NCBI RefSeq assembly: GCF_000011345.1
Contig: NC_004113.1
Span: forward strand, 310,001 to 374,000
Direction of reading: 5' to 3'
From: Thermosynechococcus vestitus BP-1
GTDB lineage: Bacteria > Cyanobacteriota > Cyanobacteriia > Thermosynechococcales > Thermosynechococcaceae
DNA length: 64,000 nt
Shown in pieces: positions 42,527-51,808 of the stretch. The notes below the pieces were generated by a model that had not been told where the DNA came from, made no database searches, and worked only from the letters and a program-made list of their open reading frames with translations. Within the stretch, counting starts at the first letter, position 1, and every line of letters starts with the position of its first letter. The translations under genes and the position numbers were made by a program.

Positions 42527-43390
42527 ATGTCGGCTCGTTCCCAAGGCCTGCGGTTTCTGATTTCCCTAGCGATCGCCACCGTGGTTGTGCTCTCCCTTTG
42601 GAAGGTAATGATTGGCTCTATTCCCCAGGGGAATCTACCCCTCGATCTCAGCCAGGCCGTATCGATTGATGATCCAGAATTTGATAGGCCAACGGAATCC
42701 TTGCCTGCGTCTGCACCCGAGAATCCGCTGCTGCCTCTGCAGCGCAGTGACGGCGCCGCCTACGATCGCCTCTTTGCTCAAGTGCGCCAAGTTCATCAAC
42801 AGTGTGCGACTACTCCCCCTTGGTACAGTGTGCCTATCGATCCCACCAATTTTGGCGATCGCTACCGTACCGATCTTCGGGGTCAACTGCTGGATCATGA
42901 ACCCCTGATTGTTTTACATGAAACGGTGGACTCTGCCGCATCAGCCCTCAACTTTTTCCAAACGCCGCATCTGCGCGATGAAGAACAGGCGAGCTACCAT
43001 GAATTGATTACCCTCAACGGTTGGCTGCTGCACTTAGTGCCTTGGTCGAAGCGCGCCTATGGTGCCGGCAATTCCGCCTTTGGCAAGGAAGCGGCGCAAA
43101 CAAATCCCCGCCTTGCCCCTTCGGTGAATAATTTTGCCCTCCACTTTTCCCTAGAAACACCCCCCCAGGGGCGCCACAATGGCCCTAGCCATACTGGCTA
43201 CACCGATGCCCAATACCGCACCTTGGCGTGGCTAGTGGCGCAAACGGGTATTGATCGCCAACGGGTGACCACCCATGCAGCGGTCGATCGCTCCGGGGAA
43301 CGCATGGATCCGCGCAGCTTTGATTGGGTTAAATTTAATCGCTATTGGCAGCTCTATCGCGATCGCGCCTGTGGCGATTCCCTTCCCTAG
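42527..43390 (+). CDS. N-acetylmuramoyl-L-alanine amidase (Ami_2/PGRP fold)
   Basis: A 287-residue cell-wall hydrolase that cuts the bond between MurNAc and the peptide. [20 protein letters not shown] forms a signal anchor. The amidase domain has the first zinc histidine in [13 protein letters not shown], the segment [20 protein letters not shown], and the second zinc ligand in [21 protein letters not shown] chose ATG 42527 because it opens the signal anchor; the frame extends to 42491. Its 3' end overlaps the SDR gene by four bases, tail to tail. A decayed copy of its last 60 bases occurs at 44636-44697. Confidence 0.87.
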
Positions 43391-44268: not shown

Positions 44269-44875
44269 CCATCAAAGGATTCTTGTCTCAGCGTGCCCTA
44301 GGGGGAGCCACAATGCAAGACTCTTCATTGACTACCAGGATGATTTTTGGTTGGATTGTCTTTTTATTGTCGGTTTTGGCGGAGGGGTTGTGAACCCACT
44401 GTTTGCTTTGGATAGGGGTAAAAGTGGCTGCCCCAAGCCCAACCTTCAAGATAAGGCAAGATAAGGCGAGTGCCTTGGCAGAGGATTCAGCAAACATGAC
44501 CGTGAAAAGCGTATCTGCCAAATAGCCTTGGCCTTTAAGAATGGCTAGGGCATTGAACAAAGGACAGTCCTATCCGGCAATAAAACTCGGAGCAAAAAGA
44601 AAAATCTTGCTTGGGGGAAGCGCACAGATCTAGCCAGCTTTGATTGGGTTCAATTTAGGCGCTGTTGGCAGCGCTATGGCATCGCCCCTGGGGAGACTGC
44701 AGAAACTAGACTTGGCCGCTCTGAGCACTAAACAACAATCTATATCTTTAATCTATATCTTTGGCACAAAACTTCAATCGGTGGAAGGAACGAGTGATAA
44801 CGTTGAAATCAACTTTGCCTATATTCCCTGCAATAGTATAGGATAAGGAAAACCGTAAAAACTGCTCAAGGGACT
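44269..44875. other. 607-bp non-coding region with gene remnants upstream of the dynamin island
   Basis: Contains three notable pieces. At 44313-44393 a 26-codon ORF (MQDSSLTTRMIFGWIVFLLS...) follows GGGGGAG. At 44636-44697 lies a decayed copy of the amidase 3' end (43316-43377), with 37 of the first 42 bases identical. From 44670 the sequence begins a long direct repeat shared with 48281 onward, including a 13-nt tandem doubling (44737-44762). I see no convincing gene of normal size here. Confidence 0.6.
44313..44393 (+). CDS. Possible 26-aa membrane micropeptide
   Basis: ATG 44313 is preceded by GGGGGAG five bases upstream. The 26-residue product has one hydrophobic helix (MIFGWIVFLLSVLA). 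It does not match any small photosystem or cytochrome b6f subunit that I can recall. It may be chance. Confidence 0.2.
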   Translation: MQDSSLTTRMIFGWIVFLLSVLAEGL

Positions 44876-47524
44876 ATGCAAGCGCCAAATCTCGTCTATC
44901 GGAAATTTCAGGCTGCGAGAGACGCGGCCCAAGGGTTCAAAGGTCAGTGGCAGCAATTCTCAAAGCGGTTCATTGATTGTCTTGAGCAGACCCAAAAGGC
45001 GGGGCAGGTGAAGGCGGACTTTCTCCAGCAATGCAAAGCTGACATTGCAGCACTTCACTCAAGTTTAGAGGAGGCGTTACAGGCACTCAACGCAAGGCTA
45101 GACAGCCCCCTACTCACCCTTGCCACCACCGGTACGACTAGCAGCGGCAAAAGTACCCTTGTCAACTTCCTCTGTGGTGCTGAACTTGTCCCTGTTGCCG
45201 TCAGTGAAATGAGCGCCGGCACCGTTACCCTTGAGGATGGCGACGTCCCCTCCCTGACCATTGAAGCCACACCGGGGGCCCTTTGGGAATGCGGCACTTG
45301 GGAAAACATTAGTGCAGCCACCATCTATGACAAGCTAGAGGAGGCAATGGTACAGTACCTAGACACCAAGGACACAAACCCTTCCCTAGCGCCCCCCAAA
45401 GCCAACATCACCTACCCCATCCAGTTTCTGCGGCAGCATCGGCACCAGTTGGGCCTGCCCTTTGGGACTCGTGTTCAGCTCCTTGACCTGCCCGGCTTTG
45501 CCTATGTGGGGGATGAGCGGAATGCCCAGATTATCCGTGAGCAATGTCGGCAGGCGCTATGCCTTGTCACCTACAACAGCGCTGAAACGGACGCCAAGAA
45601 AACCGAACAACTCCTTGAGGAAGTGGTGATCCAAGTCAAAAACCTAGGGGGGTCACCGGCACGGATGCTCTTTGTCCTCAATCGCATTGATGTGTTTCAG
45701 GAGGATAGAGACCCCCAGAAGTCGGAGCAGCGCTTTGTGAGCAAGACCGTTGGCCAGATCAAAGCTAAGCTTAAAGAGAAGTTGCCGGAGCATGAGGAGG
45801 CCATTGAGACGCTGAAGGTGCTGAAGCTGAGTGCCCGGGCGGCTTTGTATAGTCAACTCATCCAGCAAAGCGTAGGGGAAGAACGGGCAAAGATTTGTGA
45901 GCGGGCGGAGGAACAGCACAAAGCGTTAATTGGCGAAGACCTTTTAGAAGAGTTGCCCCGTAATCCAGCGAAATGGACTGATCACGATTGCCAGCGGGTG
46001 GCAGAGAGTCTGTGGGCAAATTCCTATGGTCAAGAACTCTTTAAGGAACTGGTTGAGCAAATTCAACAGCATTTTGCCGAGCTCGTCATTCCCCAAATTG
46101 TGGTGGACTTCAACAAGGGTGCAGCAAATAAGGTTCTAGAGTGGTGTACCCAAGAGGTCGATGCCATCTGCAACAGTATAGAAGAGAAGTATCGCCAAGA
46201 GTGTGAGAGGCTAGAGGAGACTGGGGTTCAACTTTCAGAGAAACTACAACAAGCGGGGAAAAACCTGAAGGTACCTTTTGAGGAGATGAAAGAGCTCATT
46301 ACCAGCCATTCACCCATTACCAACCATTCGATTGTGTTATTAGAATCTATTATGTTCGAATTTATTGGAAATAAAGAACAAACTGAGTGCGAACCCGAAG
46401 TTGATGATAATGATGATGATGAGTGGTCGGATAAAATACGGCAATGGCGCGATAAAATACAGCAATGGCATAGTCAGGTTGATGATGAGTGGAGGGATAA
46501 AATAAAGCTAGATGATGAAATATTACCTCTGATATACACTTGGAGACGTGAAGTATTCATCTCAATTGAGCAACTACTAGAGCAAGTTTACCTTTCTATA
46601 CAAGGTGGCAAGGTCGATTTTTCAGCGGATGTGAACCTTAAGCAGTTGCCACCCCCTGACCAGAAATACGTGCAGGAACTTGAGGAAACATTAAGAGAGT
46701 TCATTGAATTCATCAAGGCTATAGGTTATAACTGTGCAGACGTTGCTAAACAAGGAATGACCATTCGGCAAGAGACCCAGGGAGATTTCAAAATTATCTA
46801 CTTTCAGTCCATCATCAAAAATATCCAAAAGCGTCTTAGTGAGGTTATTGAAGTTCTTGTCAAAAGTGTTCTAGCTCGTGAGCAGGGTCCTATTTACGAC
46901 GTCGTGAGCCTCTTATTTAGAAACCATTTAGAATACCTACAGGAGAGTGCTCAGAGGATTGCCCCAGAGCTTGGGATTCAGTTCCCGATGAGTACTTTAA
47001 GTCAAGTTCAGAAAGAACTCAATTGGGACATCTCCCTAGAAAAAGCCTTTTCTCCAGAAGCAAAAGAGGCGACATGGACCGCTATTGAAACAAGGAAAAC
47101 AAGACCTTGGTGGCTGCTCCGGTTGATTGAAATAGAAACAAAAGTAACTGTACAAAAGTCTGGCTTAGAGCTTGAAGTTCCCAGCATGGAAAAGCTCTGT
47201 GAAGACTGGATCGCTGCCTGTAAAGAGCGGGTGGAGGAGTACTTAGTGCCCGCATATCTTGATTGGTTTATAGAGCAAACCGATTTGCTCACAGAACAAG
47301 CGAATGAATATCAGCAAGCGGTACTAGAGCGCTATCGCTCTAAATTAAGCGAATGCCGCCAAGCGCTCAGCATAGATTATGAAACCCGCAAGCAGTTTTG
47401 GGAGCCAATGCGCACAAGTGTGGCTGAGCTAGAACAAGAGCGACCTTCTTGGGATAAGATTAAGCAGTCTGAAAATGCTGGAGTAACGTCCATTGATCTA
47501 AACGCTGAAACTAGCTCAGTATAG
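44876..47524 (+). CDS. Dynamin-like GTPase, copy 1 (882 aa)
   Basis: A large GTPase of the dynamin superfamily. G1 is GTTSSGKST (86-94), G3 DLPGFAYVGD (from 204), and G4 NRID (269-272); SAGTVTLEDGD may supply the G2 threonine. Long charged helices before (1-75) and after the G domain are consistent with the bundle and stalk of bacterial dynamin-like proteins, which remodel or tether membranes. A very acidic patch (EVDDNDDDEW) lies near 510. No transmembrane segment is obvious. The downstream small gene starts 39 bp later. Residues 1-719 equal copy 2 exactly; the rest is diverged. Cellular role unknown; membrane or antiphage functions are only possibilities. Confidence 0.85.
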   Translation: MQAPNLVYRKFQAARDAAQGFKGQWQQFSKRFIDCLEQTQKAGQVKADFLQQCKADIAALHSSLEEALQALNARLDSPLLTLATTGTTSSGKSTLVNFLCGAELVPVAVSEMSAGTVTLEDGDVPSLTIEATPGALWECGTWENISAATIYDKLEEAMVQYLDTKDTNPSLAPPKANITYPIQFLRQHRHQLGLPFGTRVQLLDLPGFAYVGDERNAQIIREQCRQALCLVTYNSAETDAKKTEQLLEEVVIQVKNLGGSPARMLFVLNRIDVFQEDRDPQKSEQRFVSKTVGQIKAKLKEKLPEHEEAIETLKVLKLSARAALYSQLIQQSVGEERAKICERAEEQHKALIGEDLLEELPRNPAKWTDHDCQRVAESLWANSYGQELFKELVEQIQQHFAELVIPQIVVDFNKGAANKVLEWCTQEVDAICNSIEEKYRQECERLEETGVQLSEKLQQAGKNLKVPFEEMKELITSHSPITNHSIVLLESIMFEFIGNKEQTECEPEVDDNDDDEWSDKIRQWRDKIQQWHSQVDDEWRDKIKLDDEILPLIYTWRREVFISIEQLLEQVYLSIQGGKVDFSADVNLKQLPPPDQKYVQELEETLREFIEFIKAIGYNCADVAKQGMTIRQETQGDFKIIYFQSIIKNIQKRLSEVIEVLVKSVLAREQGPIYDVVSLLFRNHLEYLQESAQRIAPELGIQFPMSTLSQVQKELNWDISLEKAFSPEAKEATWTAIETRKTRPWWLLRLIEIETKVTVQKSGLELEVPSMEKLCEDWIAACKERVEEYLVPAYLDWFIEQTDLLTEQANEYQQAVLERYRSKLSECRQALSIDYETRKQFWEPMRTSVAELEQERPSWDKIKQSENAGVTSIDLNAETSSV

Positions 47525-47563
47525 GAAATACTCGTTAATCAAAAGTGGCAGGAGGATTATTAC

Positions 47564-48262
47564 ATGTCAAAAGAAACAAGACAAGAAACAACAATAAAAT
47601 TTCCTGCGTTGGGTATAGAGTTGCTTAAGTTCGATGGACAAAAAGTGGAGTTTTTCGGGAAAGAAGTTCTTAAGTTCGATGGACAAAAAGTAGAAGTTTT
47701 GGGGGGAGAAGTTCTTAAGTTCGATGGACAAAAAGTGGAAGTTTTCAGGCAAGAAGTTCTTAAGTTCAATGAAGATGATTGTCTAACTAGACCTCTGCCT
47801 GATCCATCAGGCAACTGCGATCTTCAGACTCCCAGGGAATCGGAAGAGCAGAGCCATCAGCCAGAACCAGTTAGAGTTCAGGCTTCTATTGCTTTAATTC
47901 TCCAAGCAAAGTATGCACCTTCTCTTAAGGAAAAGGATGTCATTCAACTAAATGACCTTTTAAGATACATTGACAAGGCAGCCTACTATTTGGTTGTGAG
48001 AACTCAAGAGATAGATAACATCGAGAAAAATTTATCTCTTGGGGAATTGGATGATAAGGCATATGAACAAGATATTTACCTGCGCATAGACATCCATCCA
48101 GCAATTCCTGAGGAAATATGCAATGCAAAGAGTAAGCTAGCCATCACATCCTTCCTTCAAAAGCATAGAAATGAATTGGAATTTAAGAATTTTAAGAATT
48201 TTAAGGTGTCCCCTTTGAAGTTACGCCTGAGTAGCAGAGGCTTAGAACAATTCAGGTCTTAA
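47564..48262 (+). CDS. Small partner of dynamin copy 1, with 15-aa N-terminal repeats
   Basis: A 232-residue protein with a good ribosome-binding site (AGGAGG) before ATG 47564. Residues 20-69 consist of three 15-residue repeats (LLKFDGQKVEFFGKE and two near copies) plus a fourth start. The C-terminal part (about 105-232, ASIALILQAKYAPSLKEKDV through LRLSSRGLEQFRS) is about 80% like the copy 2 partner. There is no membrane helix, unlike that partner. A 9-nt tandem doubling (48185-48202, Lys-Asn-Phe) marks a further difference. Unrecognised family; likely acts with the adjacent GTPase. Confidence 0.7.
   Translation: MSKETRQETTIKFPALGIELLKFDGQKVEFFGKEVLKFDGQKVEVLGGEVLKFDGQKVEVFRQEVLKFNEDDCLTRPLPDPSGNCDLQTPRESEEQSHQPEPVRVQASIALILQAKYAPSLKEKDVIQLNDLLRYIDKAAYYLVVRTQEIDNIEKNLSLGELDDKAYEQDIYLRIDIHPAIPEEICNAKSKLAITSFLQKHRNELEFKNFKNFKVSPLKLRLSSRGLEQFRS
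47621..47770 (+). repeat. 45-bp tandem repeats in the small partner of copy 1
   Basis: Three full 45-bp units (47621-47665, 47666-47710, 47711-47755) and the first 15 bases of a fourth. Each encodes [LV]LKFDGQKVE plus five variable residues. High base identity among the units indicates recent expansion. Confidence 0.9.
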
Positions 48263-48410
48263 CAGCTAGTGGCTAGTGGTAGCGCTATGGCATCGCCCCT
48301 GGGGAGACTGCAGAAACTAGACCTGGCCGCCCTGAGCACTAAACAACAATCTATATCTTTGTCGCAAAACTTATAGGATAAGGAAAACCGCAAAAACTGC
48401 TCAAGGGACT
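48263..48410 (+). promoter_or_regulatory. Leader of dynamin copy 2
   Basis: 148 bp that repeat the leader of copy 1 from 48281, but lack one 13-nt unit and about 60 bases present in copy 1 (near 44775-44837). The last 35 bases before the ATG are nearly identical in both leaders and contain ATAAGGAAAACCG. Confidence 0.5.
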
Positions 48411-50996
48411 ATGCAAGCGCCAAATCTCGTCTATCGGAAATTTCAGGCTGCGAGAGACGCGGCCCAAGGGTTCAAAGGTCAGTGGCAGCAATTCTCAAAG
48501 CGGTTCATTGATTGCCTTGAGCAGACCCAAAAGGCGGGGCAGGTGAAGGCGGACTTTCTCCAGCAATGCAAAGCTGACATTGCAGCACTTCACTCAAGTT
48601 TAGAAGAGGCGTTACAGGCACTCAACGCAAGGCTAGACAGCCCCCTACTCACCCTTGCCACCACCGGTACGACTAGCAGCGGCAAAAGTACCCTTGTCAA
48701 CTTCCTCTGTGGTGCTGAACTTGTCCCTGTTGCCGTCAGTGAAATGAGCGCCGGCACCGTTACCCTTGAGGATGGCGACGTCCCCTCCCTGACCATTGAA
48801 GCTACACCGGGGGCCCTTTGGGAATGCGGCACTTGGGAAAACATTAGTGCAGCCACCATCTATGACAAGCTAGAGGAGGCAATGGTACAGTACCTAGACA
48901 CCAAGGACACAAACCCTTCCCTAGCGCCCCCCAAAGCCAACATCACCTACCCCATCCAGTTTCTGCGGCAGCATCGGCACCAGTTGGGCCTGCCCTTTGG
49001 GACTCGTGTTCAGCTCCTTGACCTGCCCGGCTTTGCCTATGTGGGGGATGAGCGGAATGCCCAGATTATCCGTGAGCAATGTCGGCAGGCGCTATGCCTT
49101 GTCACCTACAACAGCGCTGAAACGGACGCCAAGAAAACCGAACAACTCCTTGAGGAAGTGGTGATCCAAGTCAAAAACCTAGGGGGGTCACCGGCACGGA
49201 TGCTCTTTGTCCTCAATCGCATTGATGTGTTTCAGGAGGATAGAGACCCCCAGAAGTCGGAGCAGCGCTTTGTGAGCAAGACCGTTGGCCAGATCAAAGC
49301 TAAGCTTAAAGAGAAGTTGCCGGAGCATGAGGAGGCCATTGAGACGCTGAAGGTGCTGAAGCTGAGTGCCCGGGCGGCTTTGTATAGTCAACTCATCCAG
49401 CAAAGCGTAGGGGAAGAACGGGCAAAGATTTGTGAGCGGGCGGAGGAACAGCACAAAGCGTTAATTGGCGAAGACCTTTTAGAAGAGTTGCCCCGTAATC
49501 CAGCGAAATGGACTGATCACGATTGCCAGCGGGTGGCAGAGAGTCTGTGGGCAAATTCCTATGGTCAAGAACTCTTTAAGGAACTGGTTGAGCAAATTCA
49601 ACAGCATTTTGCCGAGCTCGTCATTCCCCAAATTGTGGTGGACTTCAACAAGGGTGCAGCAAATAAGGTTCTAGAGTGGTGTACCCAAGAGGTCGATGCC
49701 ATCTGCAACAGTATAGAAGAGAAGTATCGCCAAGAGTGTGAGAGGCTAGAGGAGACTGGGGTTCAACTTTCAGAGAAACTACAACAAGCGGGGAAAAACC
49801 TGAAGGTACCTTTTGAGGAGATGAAAGAGCTCATTACCAGCCATTCACCCATTACCAACCATTCGATTGTGTTATTAGAATCTATTATGTTCGAATTTAT
49901 TGGAAATAAAGAACAAACTGAGTGCGAACCCGAAGTTGATGATAATGATGATGATGAGTGGTCGGATAAAATACGGCAATGGCGCGATAAAATACAGCAA
50001 TGGCATAGTCAGGTTGATGATGAGTGGAGGGATAAAATAAAGCTAGATGATGAAATATTACCTCTGATATACACTTGGAGACGTGAAGTATTCATCTCAA
50101 TTGAGCAACTACTAGAGCAAGTTTACCTTTCTATACAAGGTGGCAAGGTCGATTTTTCAGCGGATGTGAACCTTAAGCAGTTGCCACCCCCTGACCAGAA
50201 ATACGTGCAGGAACTTGAGGAAACATTAAGAGAGTTCATTGAATTCATCAAGGCTATAGGTTATAACTGTGCAGACGTTGCTAAACAAGGAATGACCATT
50301 CGGCAAGAGACCCAGGGAGATTTCAAAATTATCTACTTTCAGTCCATCATCAAAAATATCCAAAAGCGTCTTAGTGAGGTTATTGAAGTTCTTGTCAAAA
50401 GTGTTCTAGCTCGTGAGCAGGGTCCTATTTACGACGTCGTGAGCCTCTTATTTAGAAACCATTTAGAATACCTACAGGAGAGTGCTCAGAGGATTGCCCC
50501 AGAGCTTGGGATTCAGTTCCCGATGAGTACTTTAAGTCAAGTTCAGAAAGAACTCAATTGGGACATTTTCGTAGAAAAAGCCTTTTCTCCAAAAAAGGCG
50601 ACATGGACCACTACTGAAAGAAGGAAAGCAGGACCTCGGTCGCTGCTCTGCTTGATTGAAATAGAAACAAAAGTAAATGTAAAAAAGTCTGGTTTCGTGC
50701 TTGAAGTTCCCAGCATGGTAAAGCTCTGTGAAGACTGGAGCGCTGCCTGTAAAGAGTGGGTGGATGAGTACTTAGTGCCCGCATATCTTGATTGGCTTCT
50801 AGAGCAAACCGATTTACTCACAGAAAAAGCGAATGAATATCAGCAAGCGGTACTAGAGCGCTATCGCTCTAAATTAAGCGAATGCCACCAAGCGCTGAGC
50901 ATAGATTATGAAACCCACAAGCAGTTTTGGGAGCTAATGCGCACAAGTGTGGCCGAGCTAGAACAAGCCCGACCTTCTTGGGATAAGATTAAGTAG
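48411..50996 (+). CDS. Dynamin-like GTPase, copy 2 (861 aa, amber-shortened)
   Basis: Same GTPase motifs as copy 1 (GTTSSGKST, DLPG, NRID), and residues 1-719 are identical. From residue 720 the sequences diverge (here FVEKAFSPKKATWTTTER, there SLEKAFSPEAKEATWTAI), with two residues missing. The frame ends at TAG 50994-50996 where copy 1 has CAG; the frame then remains open for 19 more codons to the TAG at the position equivalent to the copy 1 stop. The shortened end probably leaves the protein functional. The small partner gene follows 96 bp later. Family and role as for copy 1, not proven. Confidence 0.85.
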   Translation: MQAPNLVYRKFQAARDAAQGFKGQWQQFSKRFIDCLEQTQKAGQVKADFLQQCKADIAALHSSLEEALQALNARLDSPLLTLATTGTTSSGKSTLVNFLCGAELVPVAVSEMSAGTVTLEDGDVPSLTIEATPGALWECGTWENISAATIYDKLEEAMVQYLDTKDTNPSLAPPKANITYPIQFLRQHRHQLGLPFGTRVQLLDLPGFAYVGDERNAQIIREQCRQALCLVTYNSAETDAKKTEQLLEEVVIQVKNLGGSPARMLFVLNRIDVFQEDRDPQKSEQRFVSKTVGQIKAKLKEKLPEHEEAIETLKVLKLSARAALYSQLIQQSVGEERAKICERAEEQHKALIGEDLLEELPRNPAKWTDHDCQRVAESLWANSYGQELFKELVEQIQQHFAELVIPQIVVDFNKGAANKVLEWCTQEVDAICNSIEEKYRQECERLEETGVQLSEKLQQAGKNLKVPFEEMKELITSHSPITNHSIVLLESIMFEFIGNKEQTECEPEVDDNDDDEWSDKIRQWRDKIQQWHSQVDDEWRDKIKLDDEILPLIYTWRREVFISIEQLLEQVYLSIQGGKVDFSADVNLKQLPPPDQKYVQELEETLREFIEFIKAIGYNCADVAKQGMTIRQETQGDFKIIYFQSIIKNIQKRLSEVIEVLVKSVLAREQGPIYDVVSLLFRNHLEYLQESAQRIAPELGIQFPMSTLSQVQKELNWDIFVEKAFSPKKATWTTTERRKAGPRSLLCLIEIETKVNVKKSGFVLEVPSMVKLCEDWSAACKEWVDEYLVPAYLDWLLEQTDLLTEKANEYQQAVLERYRSKLSECHQALSIDYETHKQFWELMRTSVAELEQARPSWDKIK

Positions 50997-51092
50997 TCTG
51001 AAAATGCTGGAGTAATCTCCGTTGATCTAAACGCTGAAACTAGCTCAGTATAGGACATACTCATTAATCAAAAGTGGCAGGAGGATTATTAC

Positions 51093-51683
51093 ATGTTAAA
51101 AGAAACAAGACAAGAAACAATAATAGAAATTCCTTGGTCGCTTCTTGAGTTCGGTGGAGAAAAAATTCTTTTTGGTTTGGGTTTTTTGGTTCTTTTGATT
51201 TTGGTTTTTTGGGTTTTTTGGAGAGCGTTGCTTAACAGCAATCCTCAGACTCCCAGGAAATCGGAAGAGCAGAGCTATAAGCCAGAACCATTTAAAGTTA
51301 ACGCTTCTATTGCTTTAATTCTCCAAGCAAAGGATGCACCTTCTCTTAAGGAAAAGGACACCATTGAACTAAATGAACTTTTAGAATACATTGACAAGGC
51401 AGCCTACTATTTGGTTGCGACAACTCAAGAGATAGATAACATCGAGAAAAATTTATCTCTTGGGAAATTGGATCATAAGGCATATGAACAAGATATTTAC
51501 CTGCGCATAGATATTTACCTGCGCATAGACATCCCTCCAGCAATTCCTGAGGAAATATGCAATGCAAAGACTAAGCTAGCCATCAAATCCTTCCTTCGAA
51601 AGCATGGAAATGAATTGCAATTTGAGGTGTCCCGTTTGGCGTTACGCCTGAGTAGCAGAGGCTTAGAAAACCTCAGGTCTTAA
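51093..51683 (+). CDS. Small partner of dynamin copy 2, membrane-anchored
   Basis: A 196-residue protein with the same leader and first codons as the copy 1 partner (AGGAGG before ATG 51093). In place of the 15-residue repeats it has a strong membrane helix (about 27-47, LFGLGFLVLLILVFWVFW). The C-terminal domain from ASIALILQAKDAPSLKEKDT to RLSSRGLENLRS is shared. An 18-bp tandem doubling (51492-51527) repeats IYLRID. Unrecognised family. It may tether the GTPase to a membrane, an inference from layout only. Confidence 0.72.
   Translation: MLKETRQETIIEIPWSLLEFGGEKILFGLGFLVLLILVFWVFWRALLNSNPQTPRKSEEQSYKPEPFKVNASIALILQAKDAPSLKEKDTIELNELLEYIDKAAYYLVATTQEIDNIEKNLSLGKLDHKAYEQDIYLRIDIYLRIDIPPAIPEEICNAKTKLAIKSFLRKHGNELQFEVSRLALRLSSRGLENLRS
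51492..51527 (+). repeat. 18-bp tandem doubling in the small partner of copy 2
   Basis: Two exact copies of GATATTTACCTGCGCATA. The copy 1 partner has only one, so the doubling arose after the module was duplicated. Confidence 0.95.
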
Positions 51684-51808
51684 CAGCTAGTGGCTAGGCG
51701 CTGAATCTGGCCAGGTTGCCACACGCAACTGCCTTTGGCTGATCCCTGGCAAAGGGAATGGGGTACCCTAAGAAAGGCTTTGCACATTGAACGAGGAACA
51801 CAGCCCGA

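What the first reader, a model, noticed from the sequence alone, without database searches (positions are those of the whole stretch)
44670..51697. Tandemly repeated two-gene module: dynamin-like GTPase plus a variable small partner
Two consecutive units each hold a GTPase of about 870 residues (GTTSSGKST, DLPG, NRID) and a small gene with a shared C-terminal domain and a different N-terminus. The GTPases look like the bacterial dynamin-like family, whose members remodel or tether membranes and sometimes occur as adjacent pairs. I know of no described system combining two nearly identical dynamins with a membrane-anchored and a repeat-bearing partner. I propose that the small proteins set where each GTPase acts. 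Membrane repair, thylakoid shaping or antiphage action are open possibilities. No recognised defence gene lies beside the island.
Basis: partly seen in the sequence, partly recalled or inferred. Interest (0 to 1): 0.87.

Follow-up and report, generated by a model that had tools for sequence, protein, structure and literature searches.

The report
Hypervariable dynamin GTPase–adaptor gene module
A probably heat-loving cyanobacterium carries three copies of a two-gene module, a dynamin-like membrane GTPase plus a small adaptor protein; the module is a pared-down relative of an apparently undescribed three-gene bacterial dynamin operon whose GTPase tail and adaptor change unusually fast, as the parts of immune proteins that meet a changing enemy do.

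Summary
Two units (44837-48266 and 48372-51697) each hold a dynamin-like GTPase and a small gene; a third unit lies 49.6 kb upstream, outside the window. Fold prediction places the GTPase with mitofusin, BDLP and SynDLP. Among 386 cyanobacterial genomes the GTPase (DynA) and the small gene occur in the same 15 genomes, always adjacent; in 13 of these a second, different dynamin (DynB) follows. This genome lacks DynB and has multiplied DynA plus the small gene. Both insertion sites are empty in related species. The small protein is a modular adaptor: a conserved 120-residue domain without a fold match, behind an N-terminus that is a membrane helix, a 15-residue repeat or a stub. The GTPase fronts of units A and B are identical over 1,760 nt (probable gene conversion), whereas the adaptor domain shows 47 nonsynonymous to 3 synonymous changes among the three copies (neutral expectation 11-15 synonymous). 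In Microcystis the back half of DynA plus the small gene is swapped as an allelic block between near-identical flanks. Best reading: an adaptor-positioned membrane-remodelling GTPase under recognition pressure, most likely anti-phage. The defence role is inferred; no defence genes lie beside it.

The parts
44666..44749 (+). relic of the 3' tail of a unit, upstream of unit A (the same tail follows unit A at 48277-48360 and copy C at L031:10414-10467)
44837..44875 (+). leader shared by units A and B (98-99% identical)
44876..47524 (+). DynA copy A: dynamin-like GTPase, 882 aa
   Evidence: Dynamin_N 1.2e-9; AlphaFold2 pLDDT 79, closest PDB folds mitofusin/BDLP/SynDLP, VIA Z about 22
45131..45157 (+). 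G1/P-loop GTTSSGKST of DynA copy A
45270..47029 (+). block with no nucleotide difference between copies A and B (corresponds to 48805-50564): probable gene-conversion tract
45485..45496 (+). G3 motif DLPG of DynA copy A
45680..45691 (+). G4 motif NRID of DynA copy A
47036..47200 (+). beta-hairpin region (codons 721-775), candidate membrane-contact tip; start of the part in which copies A and B diverge
   Evidence: predicted strands 730-742 and 753-768; A/B identity 0.887 at 47064-47213
47564..48262 (+). small adaptor A, 232 aa, no membrane helix
47619..47771 (+). 45-nt tandem repeat, 3.4 copies, coding for 15-residue repeats (EVLKFDGQKVEVFG-like), where adaptor B has its membrane helix
47876..48259 (+). 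conserved adaptor C-terminal domain, copy A
48411..50996 (+). DynA copy B: dynamin-like GTPase, 861 aa; a TAG ends it 19 residues before the position homologous to copy A's stop
51093..51683 (+). small adaptor B, 196 aa, with one N-terminal membrane helix
51165..51221 (+). membrane helix ILFGLGFLVLLILVFWVFW of adaptor B
   Evidence: hydropathy 2.79; helix 25-47 in the model
51297..51680 (+). conserved adaptor C-terminal domain, copy B (pLDDT mostly above 90; no PDB fold match)

Best explanation
The module is a reduced and multiplied form of a three-gene bacterial dynamin operon (DynA, small adaptor, DynB). DynA is a mitofusin/BDLP-type membrane-remodelling GTPase without a membrane helix of its own. 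The adaptor binds the back half of DynA (stalk, tip and GED) through its conserved domain and sets where DynA assembles through a swappable N-terminus: a membrane helix in adaptor B, a 15-residue repeat in A, a short stub in C. DynA then polymerises and remodels or seals membrane. The back of DynA and the adaptor are the parts that meet a varying partner, most likely a phage product or phage-damaged membrane, so they diversify while the GTPase motor stays constant and is homogenised by gene conversion. Shown here: dynamin fold, adjacency, co-occurrence, absence of DynB, anchor swapping, excess nonsynonymous change in the adaptor domain, and block exchange of the DynA back half plus adaptor in Microcystis. 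Inferred: the physical DynA-adaptor contact, membrane positioning, and the anti-phage purpose.
For: Dynamin superfamily. Adaptor adjacent in 15 of 15 dynA genomes; in the only other genome with an adaptor match (G309) it also sits beside a dynamin-like GTPase. DynB follows in 13 of 15. Adaptor: conserved domain, variable N-terminus, usually one membrane helix. Diversification: 47 nonsynonymous and 3 synonymous changes in the adaptor domain among copies A, B and C, P 0.0017 to 0.00004 against neutrality; with codons near gaps removed 26 and 0, P 0.001 to 0.00009. DynA codons 721-end: 38 and 6. Reading frames kept: no stop between copies A and C against 5.2 expected. Neighbouring housekeeping genes have w 0.05-0.30 against a sister species. 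Microcystis: four genomes with dynB 95-100% identical, but two classes of DynA-back-half-plus-adaptor 54-68% identical, which recombine against different fronts. Patchy, decaying distribution: 15 of 386 genomes, with dynB fragments in five more; empty sites in sister species. Precedents: Bacillus DynA delays phage lysis (PMC8844932); MxA specificity lies in a fast-evolving loop (PMC12047444).
Against: Neighbours in this genome and in relatives are mostly housekeeping genes, and PADLOC finds no consistent defence genes beside the operon. No orthologue was found in phage, plasmid or viral collections, so there is no sign of carriage by mobile elements. Elsewhere in the family the DynA tip is not fast-evolving (w 0.21-0.27) and the adaptor domain has w 0.43-0.50, so the excess in the window copies rests on three paralogues and few synonymous changes. 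The Microcystis blocks could reflect transfer of an old allele without selection. Nothing here tests contact between DynA and the adaptor.
Confidence: 0.45

Rival explanations
1. Membrane maintenance: the module repairs or shapes plasma or thylakoid membranes under stress (heat, light, antibiotics), and the adaptors direct DynA copies to different membranes. No enemy is involved.
For: Bacterial dynamins are widely proposed to tether or repair membranes (PMC6104087); cyanobacteria have thylakoids and many dynamins (PMC5827413); neighbours are housekeeping genes; different N-termini could mean different membranes.
Against: A maintenance gene is not expected in only 15 of 386 genomes and in one sampled genome of its own genus, to decay often, or to show more nonsynonymous than neutral change in the adaptor and block-swapped alleles in Microcystis.
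Confidence: 0.25
2. Relaxed constraint after loss of DynB: the three copies are decaying duplicates, and the divergence of tails and adaptors is drift.
For: DynB is gone; w of DynA between copies is 0.85-0.93; DynA copy B has lost 19 residues at its end and adaptor C is short; relatives often carry broken copies.
Against: Drift gives w near 1, not the 47 to 3 ratio in the adaptor domain. All three GTPases and adaptors stay open, with no stop between A and C against 5.2 expected; the G domain is the least changed part and appears to be homogenised.
Confidence: 0.15
3. Signalling switch: like E. coli RdcA/RdcB, the GTPase and its small partner read GTP level or membrane state and regulate another membrane protein rather than remodel membrane.
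For: RdcA is a dynamin-like GTPase encoded with a small partner and binds a membrane domain of DgcE (PMC6510439); the two-gene layout here is superficially the same.
Against: The RdcA/CrfC profile (PRK09866) matches only the P-loop region weakly (15.9 bits against a cut-off of 1146) and no RdcB-like family matches the adaptor. The whole predicted fold is that of long-stalked remodelling dynamins. A regulator does not explain the diversifying adaptor.
Confidence: 0.1
4. Self/non-self or kin recognition: allelic DynA tails and adaptors mark strains and govern membrane exchange or conflict between cells.
For: Two allelic classes at one locus in Microcystis, recombining with different fronts, resemble recognition loci.
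Against: No part carries a recognisable export signal or outer-membrane feature beyond the single adaptor helix; three different versions coexist in one genome here, which is odd for an identity marker.
Confidence: 0.05

Closest known systems
Tandem cyanobacterial dynamin pairs (BDLP1 'Tandem B' and its 'Tandem A' neighbour; survey PMC5827413)
   Same: Dynamin-like GTPases encoded in neighbouring genes in cyanobacteria; heterotypic action proposed.
   Different: DynA and DynB profiles match BDLP1 at best at the P-loop (2e-4), while BDLP1-like paralogues of Nostoc match it at about 1e-27. A small adaptor lies between the two genes here; none is encoded beside the other cyanobacterial dynamins examined, and the survey text names KGK, HSR1 and DnaK neighbours but not this one. 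Its supplementary gene list could not be read.
LeoABC / Eleos dynamin systems
   Same: Two cooperating dynamins in one operon, one with a membrane anchor (PMC4159319); DynA matches PADLOC LeoBC and LeoA weakly.
   Different: Matches are weak and partial; the membrane anchor sits on a separate small adaptor, not on a split GTPase; the window's genome has no second dynamin type.
Campylobacter Cj-DLP1/Cj-DLP2 heterotypic pair
   Same: Adjacent different dynamins that tether membranes as hetero-oligomers (PMC6104087); among the fold matches of DynA (5oxf, 5owv).
   Different: No adaptor gene between them; in the window's genome only the DynA half remains.
E. coli RdcA (YjdA/CrfC) with RdcB (YjcZ)
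   Same: Dynamin-like GTPase followed by a small partner gene that binds it (PMC6510439).
   Different: RdcB is soluble and no RdcB-like family matches the adaptor; RdcA's profile does not match DynA beyond the P-loop.
Vertebrate Mx and IRG immunity GTPases
   Same: Dynamin-family GTPases with constant motor and fast-evolving recognition parts (MxA: PMC12047444, PMC4687636); tandem copies in the case of IRGs (own knowledge). Works-like comparison only.
   Different: Different branch of the superfamily; no adaptor gene; antiviral action shown there, not here.
Bacillus subtilis DynA
   Same: Bacterial dynamin that protects a culture from phage by delaying lysis (PMC8844932).
   Different: Two fused dynamins in one chain, no adaptor, no diversification known to me.

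Membership tests
Dynamin superfamily (bacterial dynamin-like proteins) | dynamin-type G domain with G1, G3 and G4 motifs | tested here: met
   Dynamin_N 38.9 bits, cut-off 27; GTTSSGKST, DLPG, NRID
Dynamin superfamily (bacterial dynamin-like proteins) | G domain followed by long helical neck and trunk with C-terminal GED return helix | tested here: met
   model helices 385-477, 547-577, 593-615, 639-695, 771-854; best PDB matches mitofusin, SynDLP, BDLP, Z about 22
Dynamin superfamily (bacterial dynamin-like proteins) | GTP-dependent membrane binding, tubulation or fusion | not testable with these tools
   needs purified protein
BDLP1 clade (cyanobacterial 'Tandem B') | full-length sequence similarity to Nostoc BDLP1 | tested here: not met
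   DynA profile: BDLP1 not among hits to E 0.1; DynB profile: 2e-4 over 63 residues; BDLP1-like paralogues score about 1e-27
KGK-clade cyanobacterial dynamins | downstream small protein with KGK domain (PF08872) | tested here: not met
   none of 19 adaptors matches PF08872 at E up to 1
LeoABC / Eleos | LeoA and LeoBC proteins encoded together | tested here: not met
   only partial LeoBC/LeoA matches, 1.4e-6 and 4e-4, by the same protein; no second dynamin type in the genome
E. coli RdcA/RdcB | RdcA-type GTPase (PRK09866) and YjcZ partner | tested here: not met
   15.9 bits against cut-off 1146, P-loop only; no YjcZ match in adaptors
DynA-adaptor-DynB operon (described here) | DynA of this clade followed by an adaptor with the conserved C-terminal domain | tested here: met
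DynA-adaptor-DynB operon (described here) | DynB downstream | tested here: not met
   no DynB in the genome; 13 of the 15 sampled dynA genomes have it, so this is a derived two-gene form
Anti-phage defence systems | protects against phage in an infection test | not testable with these tools
   only indirect evolutionary signs
Anti-phage defence systems | located among other defence genes (common but not required) | tested here: not met
   neighbours mainly housekeeping here and in relatives

The most novel reading that the evidence does not exclude
A bacterial counterpart of Mx/IRG immunity: a dynamin defence operon in which an unrelated adaptor carries the fast-evolving recognition surface together with the dynamin's back half, the two being exchanged as one block between strains, while motor and second dynamin stay constant. 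In this genome the second dynamin was dropped and three differently anchored versions coexist.
Probability: 0.3. Interest if true: 0.85.

Novelty: new variant of a known kind. Interest (0 to 1): 0.66.

Why it matters
Bacterial dynamins are common but few have a known purpose. A dynamin operon with a dedicated, swappable membrane adaptor gives a handle on how these GTPases are sent to a membrane. If the diversification is driven by phage, it would show that bacteria, like vertebrates with Mx and IRG proteins, use dynamins as recognition-driven antiviral machines, and a hypervariable locus with natural alleles makes this directly testable.

Tried and rejected
The adaptor domain gave no Pfam or solved-structure match (best VIA Z 3.2), so its fold is unassigned, not shown to be new. 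Search for mobile-element carriage: no phage, viral or orthologous plasmid match; one distant dynamin on a Nostoc plasmid at 27% identity. Defence-island test on 114 neighbour proteins: at most 3 proteins per PADLOC family, and one protein near the operon in Nostoc L041 hit mad8; no consistent partner. Promoter and terminator scans: no more sites than in shuffles. Membership in the BDLP1, KGK, Leo and Rdc groups was tested and rejected as listed. An assembly artefact of the tandem copies was considered and rejected: the genome is one contig, the copies differ in leader, tail and small gene, and a third divergent copy exists elsewhere. DynA alignment A3 could not be used for the viral scan; A1 was used instead. 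Literature searches for Eleos with dynamin-like terms, and for cyanobacterial dynamins with anti-phage defence, gave nothing.
Full report
Observation. ORF listing confirms GTPase A 44876-47524 (882 aa), small gene A 47564-48262 (232 aa), GTPase B 48411-50996 (861 aa) and small gene B 51093-51683 (196 aa). The units align at 98% over 2,769 nt and at 85% over the small gene's 3' part. Small gene A has a 45-nt repeat in 3.4 copies; small gene B has one strong membrane helix. A third unit lies at C1:305241-307886 of the same one-contig genome, 49.6 kb from unit A, with a third small gene, 158 aa, with neither helix nor repeat. The three GTPases are the only full-length large dynamin-like proteins that a Dynamin_N search finds in the genome. 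The organism is probably a Thermosynechococcus (my inference from 2.59 Mb, 53.8% G+C and gene content; not tested).

Arrival. In four relatives of the same genus the window site holds no module: in G005 the two flanking genes are 69 nt apart, in G002 and G004 about 450 nt, and G001 also lacks it. The site of the third copy is likewise empty in G002 and G004. Among the sampled genomes of the genus only this one has DynA of this clade. A tail relic at 44666-44749 suggests that a further unit once stood in front of unit A.

What the large protein is. Pfam Dynamin_N is over its cut-off. The AlphaFold2 model (mean pLDDT 79) matches mitofusin, BDLP, SynDLP, IniA and the Campylobacter pair, with VIA Z about 22 for the best. 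It has no membrane helix by hydropathy, but a predicted beta-hairpin at 730-768 with conserved aromatic residues (R-W--LW in relatives) is a candidate membrane tip (inference). It is not of the BDLP1 clade.

The family. A scan of genome contigs brought 25 loci. Where the locus is readable and intact, the order is DynA, small gene, DynB, in Nostoc, Okeania, Microcystis, Crocosphaera, Phormidium, Geitlerinema, Leptolyngbya, Xenococcus, Chamaesiphon and Snowella; DynA with a small gene also occurs in MAGs labelled Nitrosomonas, Anaerolineales and Flavobacterium (the labels may be wrong). In a sample of 386 cyanobacterial genomes, DynA (E below 1e-100) and the small gene occur in the same 15, always adjacent; DynB, whole or half, is in 13 of these. 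The two exceptions are this genome and G422, whose DynA carries a stop. Five further genomes keep only pieces of DynB. One more genome, G309, has the small gene beside a more distant dynamin. Other dynamins of the same genomes lack the small gene. Duplication recurs independently: G050 has its own tandem of DynA plus small gene, one small protein without and one with a clear membrane helix; G215 has two small genes in a row. In the tree the window copies form one deep branch.

The adaptor. Its conserved domain of about 120 residues is predicted with pLDDT mostly above 90 as a mixed alpha/beta domain and has no match in Pfam or among solved structures. In front of it stands a variable segment, usually with one membrane helix and often a further N-terminal region; some members have no helix. 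Within this genome the segment is a repeat, a helix or a stub, with sharp borders. In Microcystis G490 the same domain lacks the helix and N-terminal region of its sister.

Evolution. Copies A and B have no nucleotide difference from 45270 to 47029, yet differ by 11% at 47064-47213 and more in the small gene; copy C differs from both by about 4-5%. Gene conversion of the motor is the simplest account. Among the three copies the adaptor domain shows 47 nonsynonymous and 3 synonymous changes; neutral expectation is 11-15 synonymous, P 0.0017 to 0.00004 depending on the transition bias assumed. Without codons near gaps it is 26 to 0. DynA codons 721-end show 38 to 6 (P 0.12 to 0.016). The G domain shows no such excess. 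Housekeeping neighbours compared with G002 have w 0.05-0.30. No stop has arisen between A and C against 5.2 expected. In the wider family DynB is the most constrained protein (w 0.14 in the one pair tested) and the adaptor the least (0.64-0.84 over full length), but the DynA tip is not unusual there.

Microcystis. In four genomes dynB is 95-100% identical in every pair. The back half of DynA plus the small gene comes in two classes, 54-68% identical between and mostly 85-100% within classes (the adaptor's N-terminus apart); the front varies independently, so G488 shares its front with G496 but its back with G490. The exchanged block runs from about codon 420 of DynA to the end of the small gene. 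The same division, constant motor against changing tail plus partner, is thus seen in two unrelated lineages. That tail and adaptor change together fits physical contact, though linkage alone could give it.

Reading. Patchy presence, frequent decay, empty sites, duplication, block exchange and nonsynonymous excess are marks of genes in conflict with a changing opponent. With the precedents of Bacillus DynA (PMC8844932) and of MxA (PMC12047444), anti-phage action is the likeliest purpose, at about 0.45. Against it: no defence island, no mobile-element carriage found, and no experiment. Membrane maintenance (0.25) and decay after loss of DynB (0.15) are the main rivals.

Limits. The selection test rests on three paralogues with few synonymous changes, and the star counting treats the majority base as ancestral. 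Collections are samples. The genus is inferred. Contact, localisation and function are untested.

Noticed in passing
window 44614-44690 and 43295-43371: A degenerate second copy (82%) of the 3' end of the neighbouring N-acetylmuramoyl-L-alanine amidase gene lies just upstream of unit A and runs into the tail relic; it may mark how the units arrived or spread.
   Followed up: partly
window 51491-51529: 18-nt tandem duplication in small gene B (YLRIDI twice) within the conserved domain.
   Followed up: no
window 46430-46469 and 49965-50004: DynA of this genome has an acidic, repeat-bearing insertion (DDNDDDEWSDKIRQWRDKIQQWHSQVDDEWRDK) absent from relatives; pLDDT is low there.
   Followed up: no
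L035 6178-8676 (G005, same genus): A more distant single dynamin-like GTPase (832 aa, PADLOC LeoBC 2e-13) in a sister species that lacks the module.
   Followed up: no
L056 4984-9189 (MAG labelled Nitrosomonas): DynA-like domain in a 1401-aa open frame followed by an adaptor and a short dynamin-like gene: a possible fused version of the operon.
   Followed up: no
L190 1797-5278 (G309): Distant, broken dynamin followed by an adaptor-like protein with membrane helix: the adaptor family extends beyond the DynA clade.
   Followed up: partly
L033 2282-4938 (G050): A probable nSTAND-type NTPase gene lies upstream, on the opposite strand, of the duplicated dynamin module.
   Followed up: no
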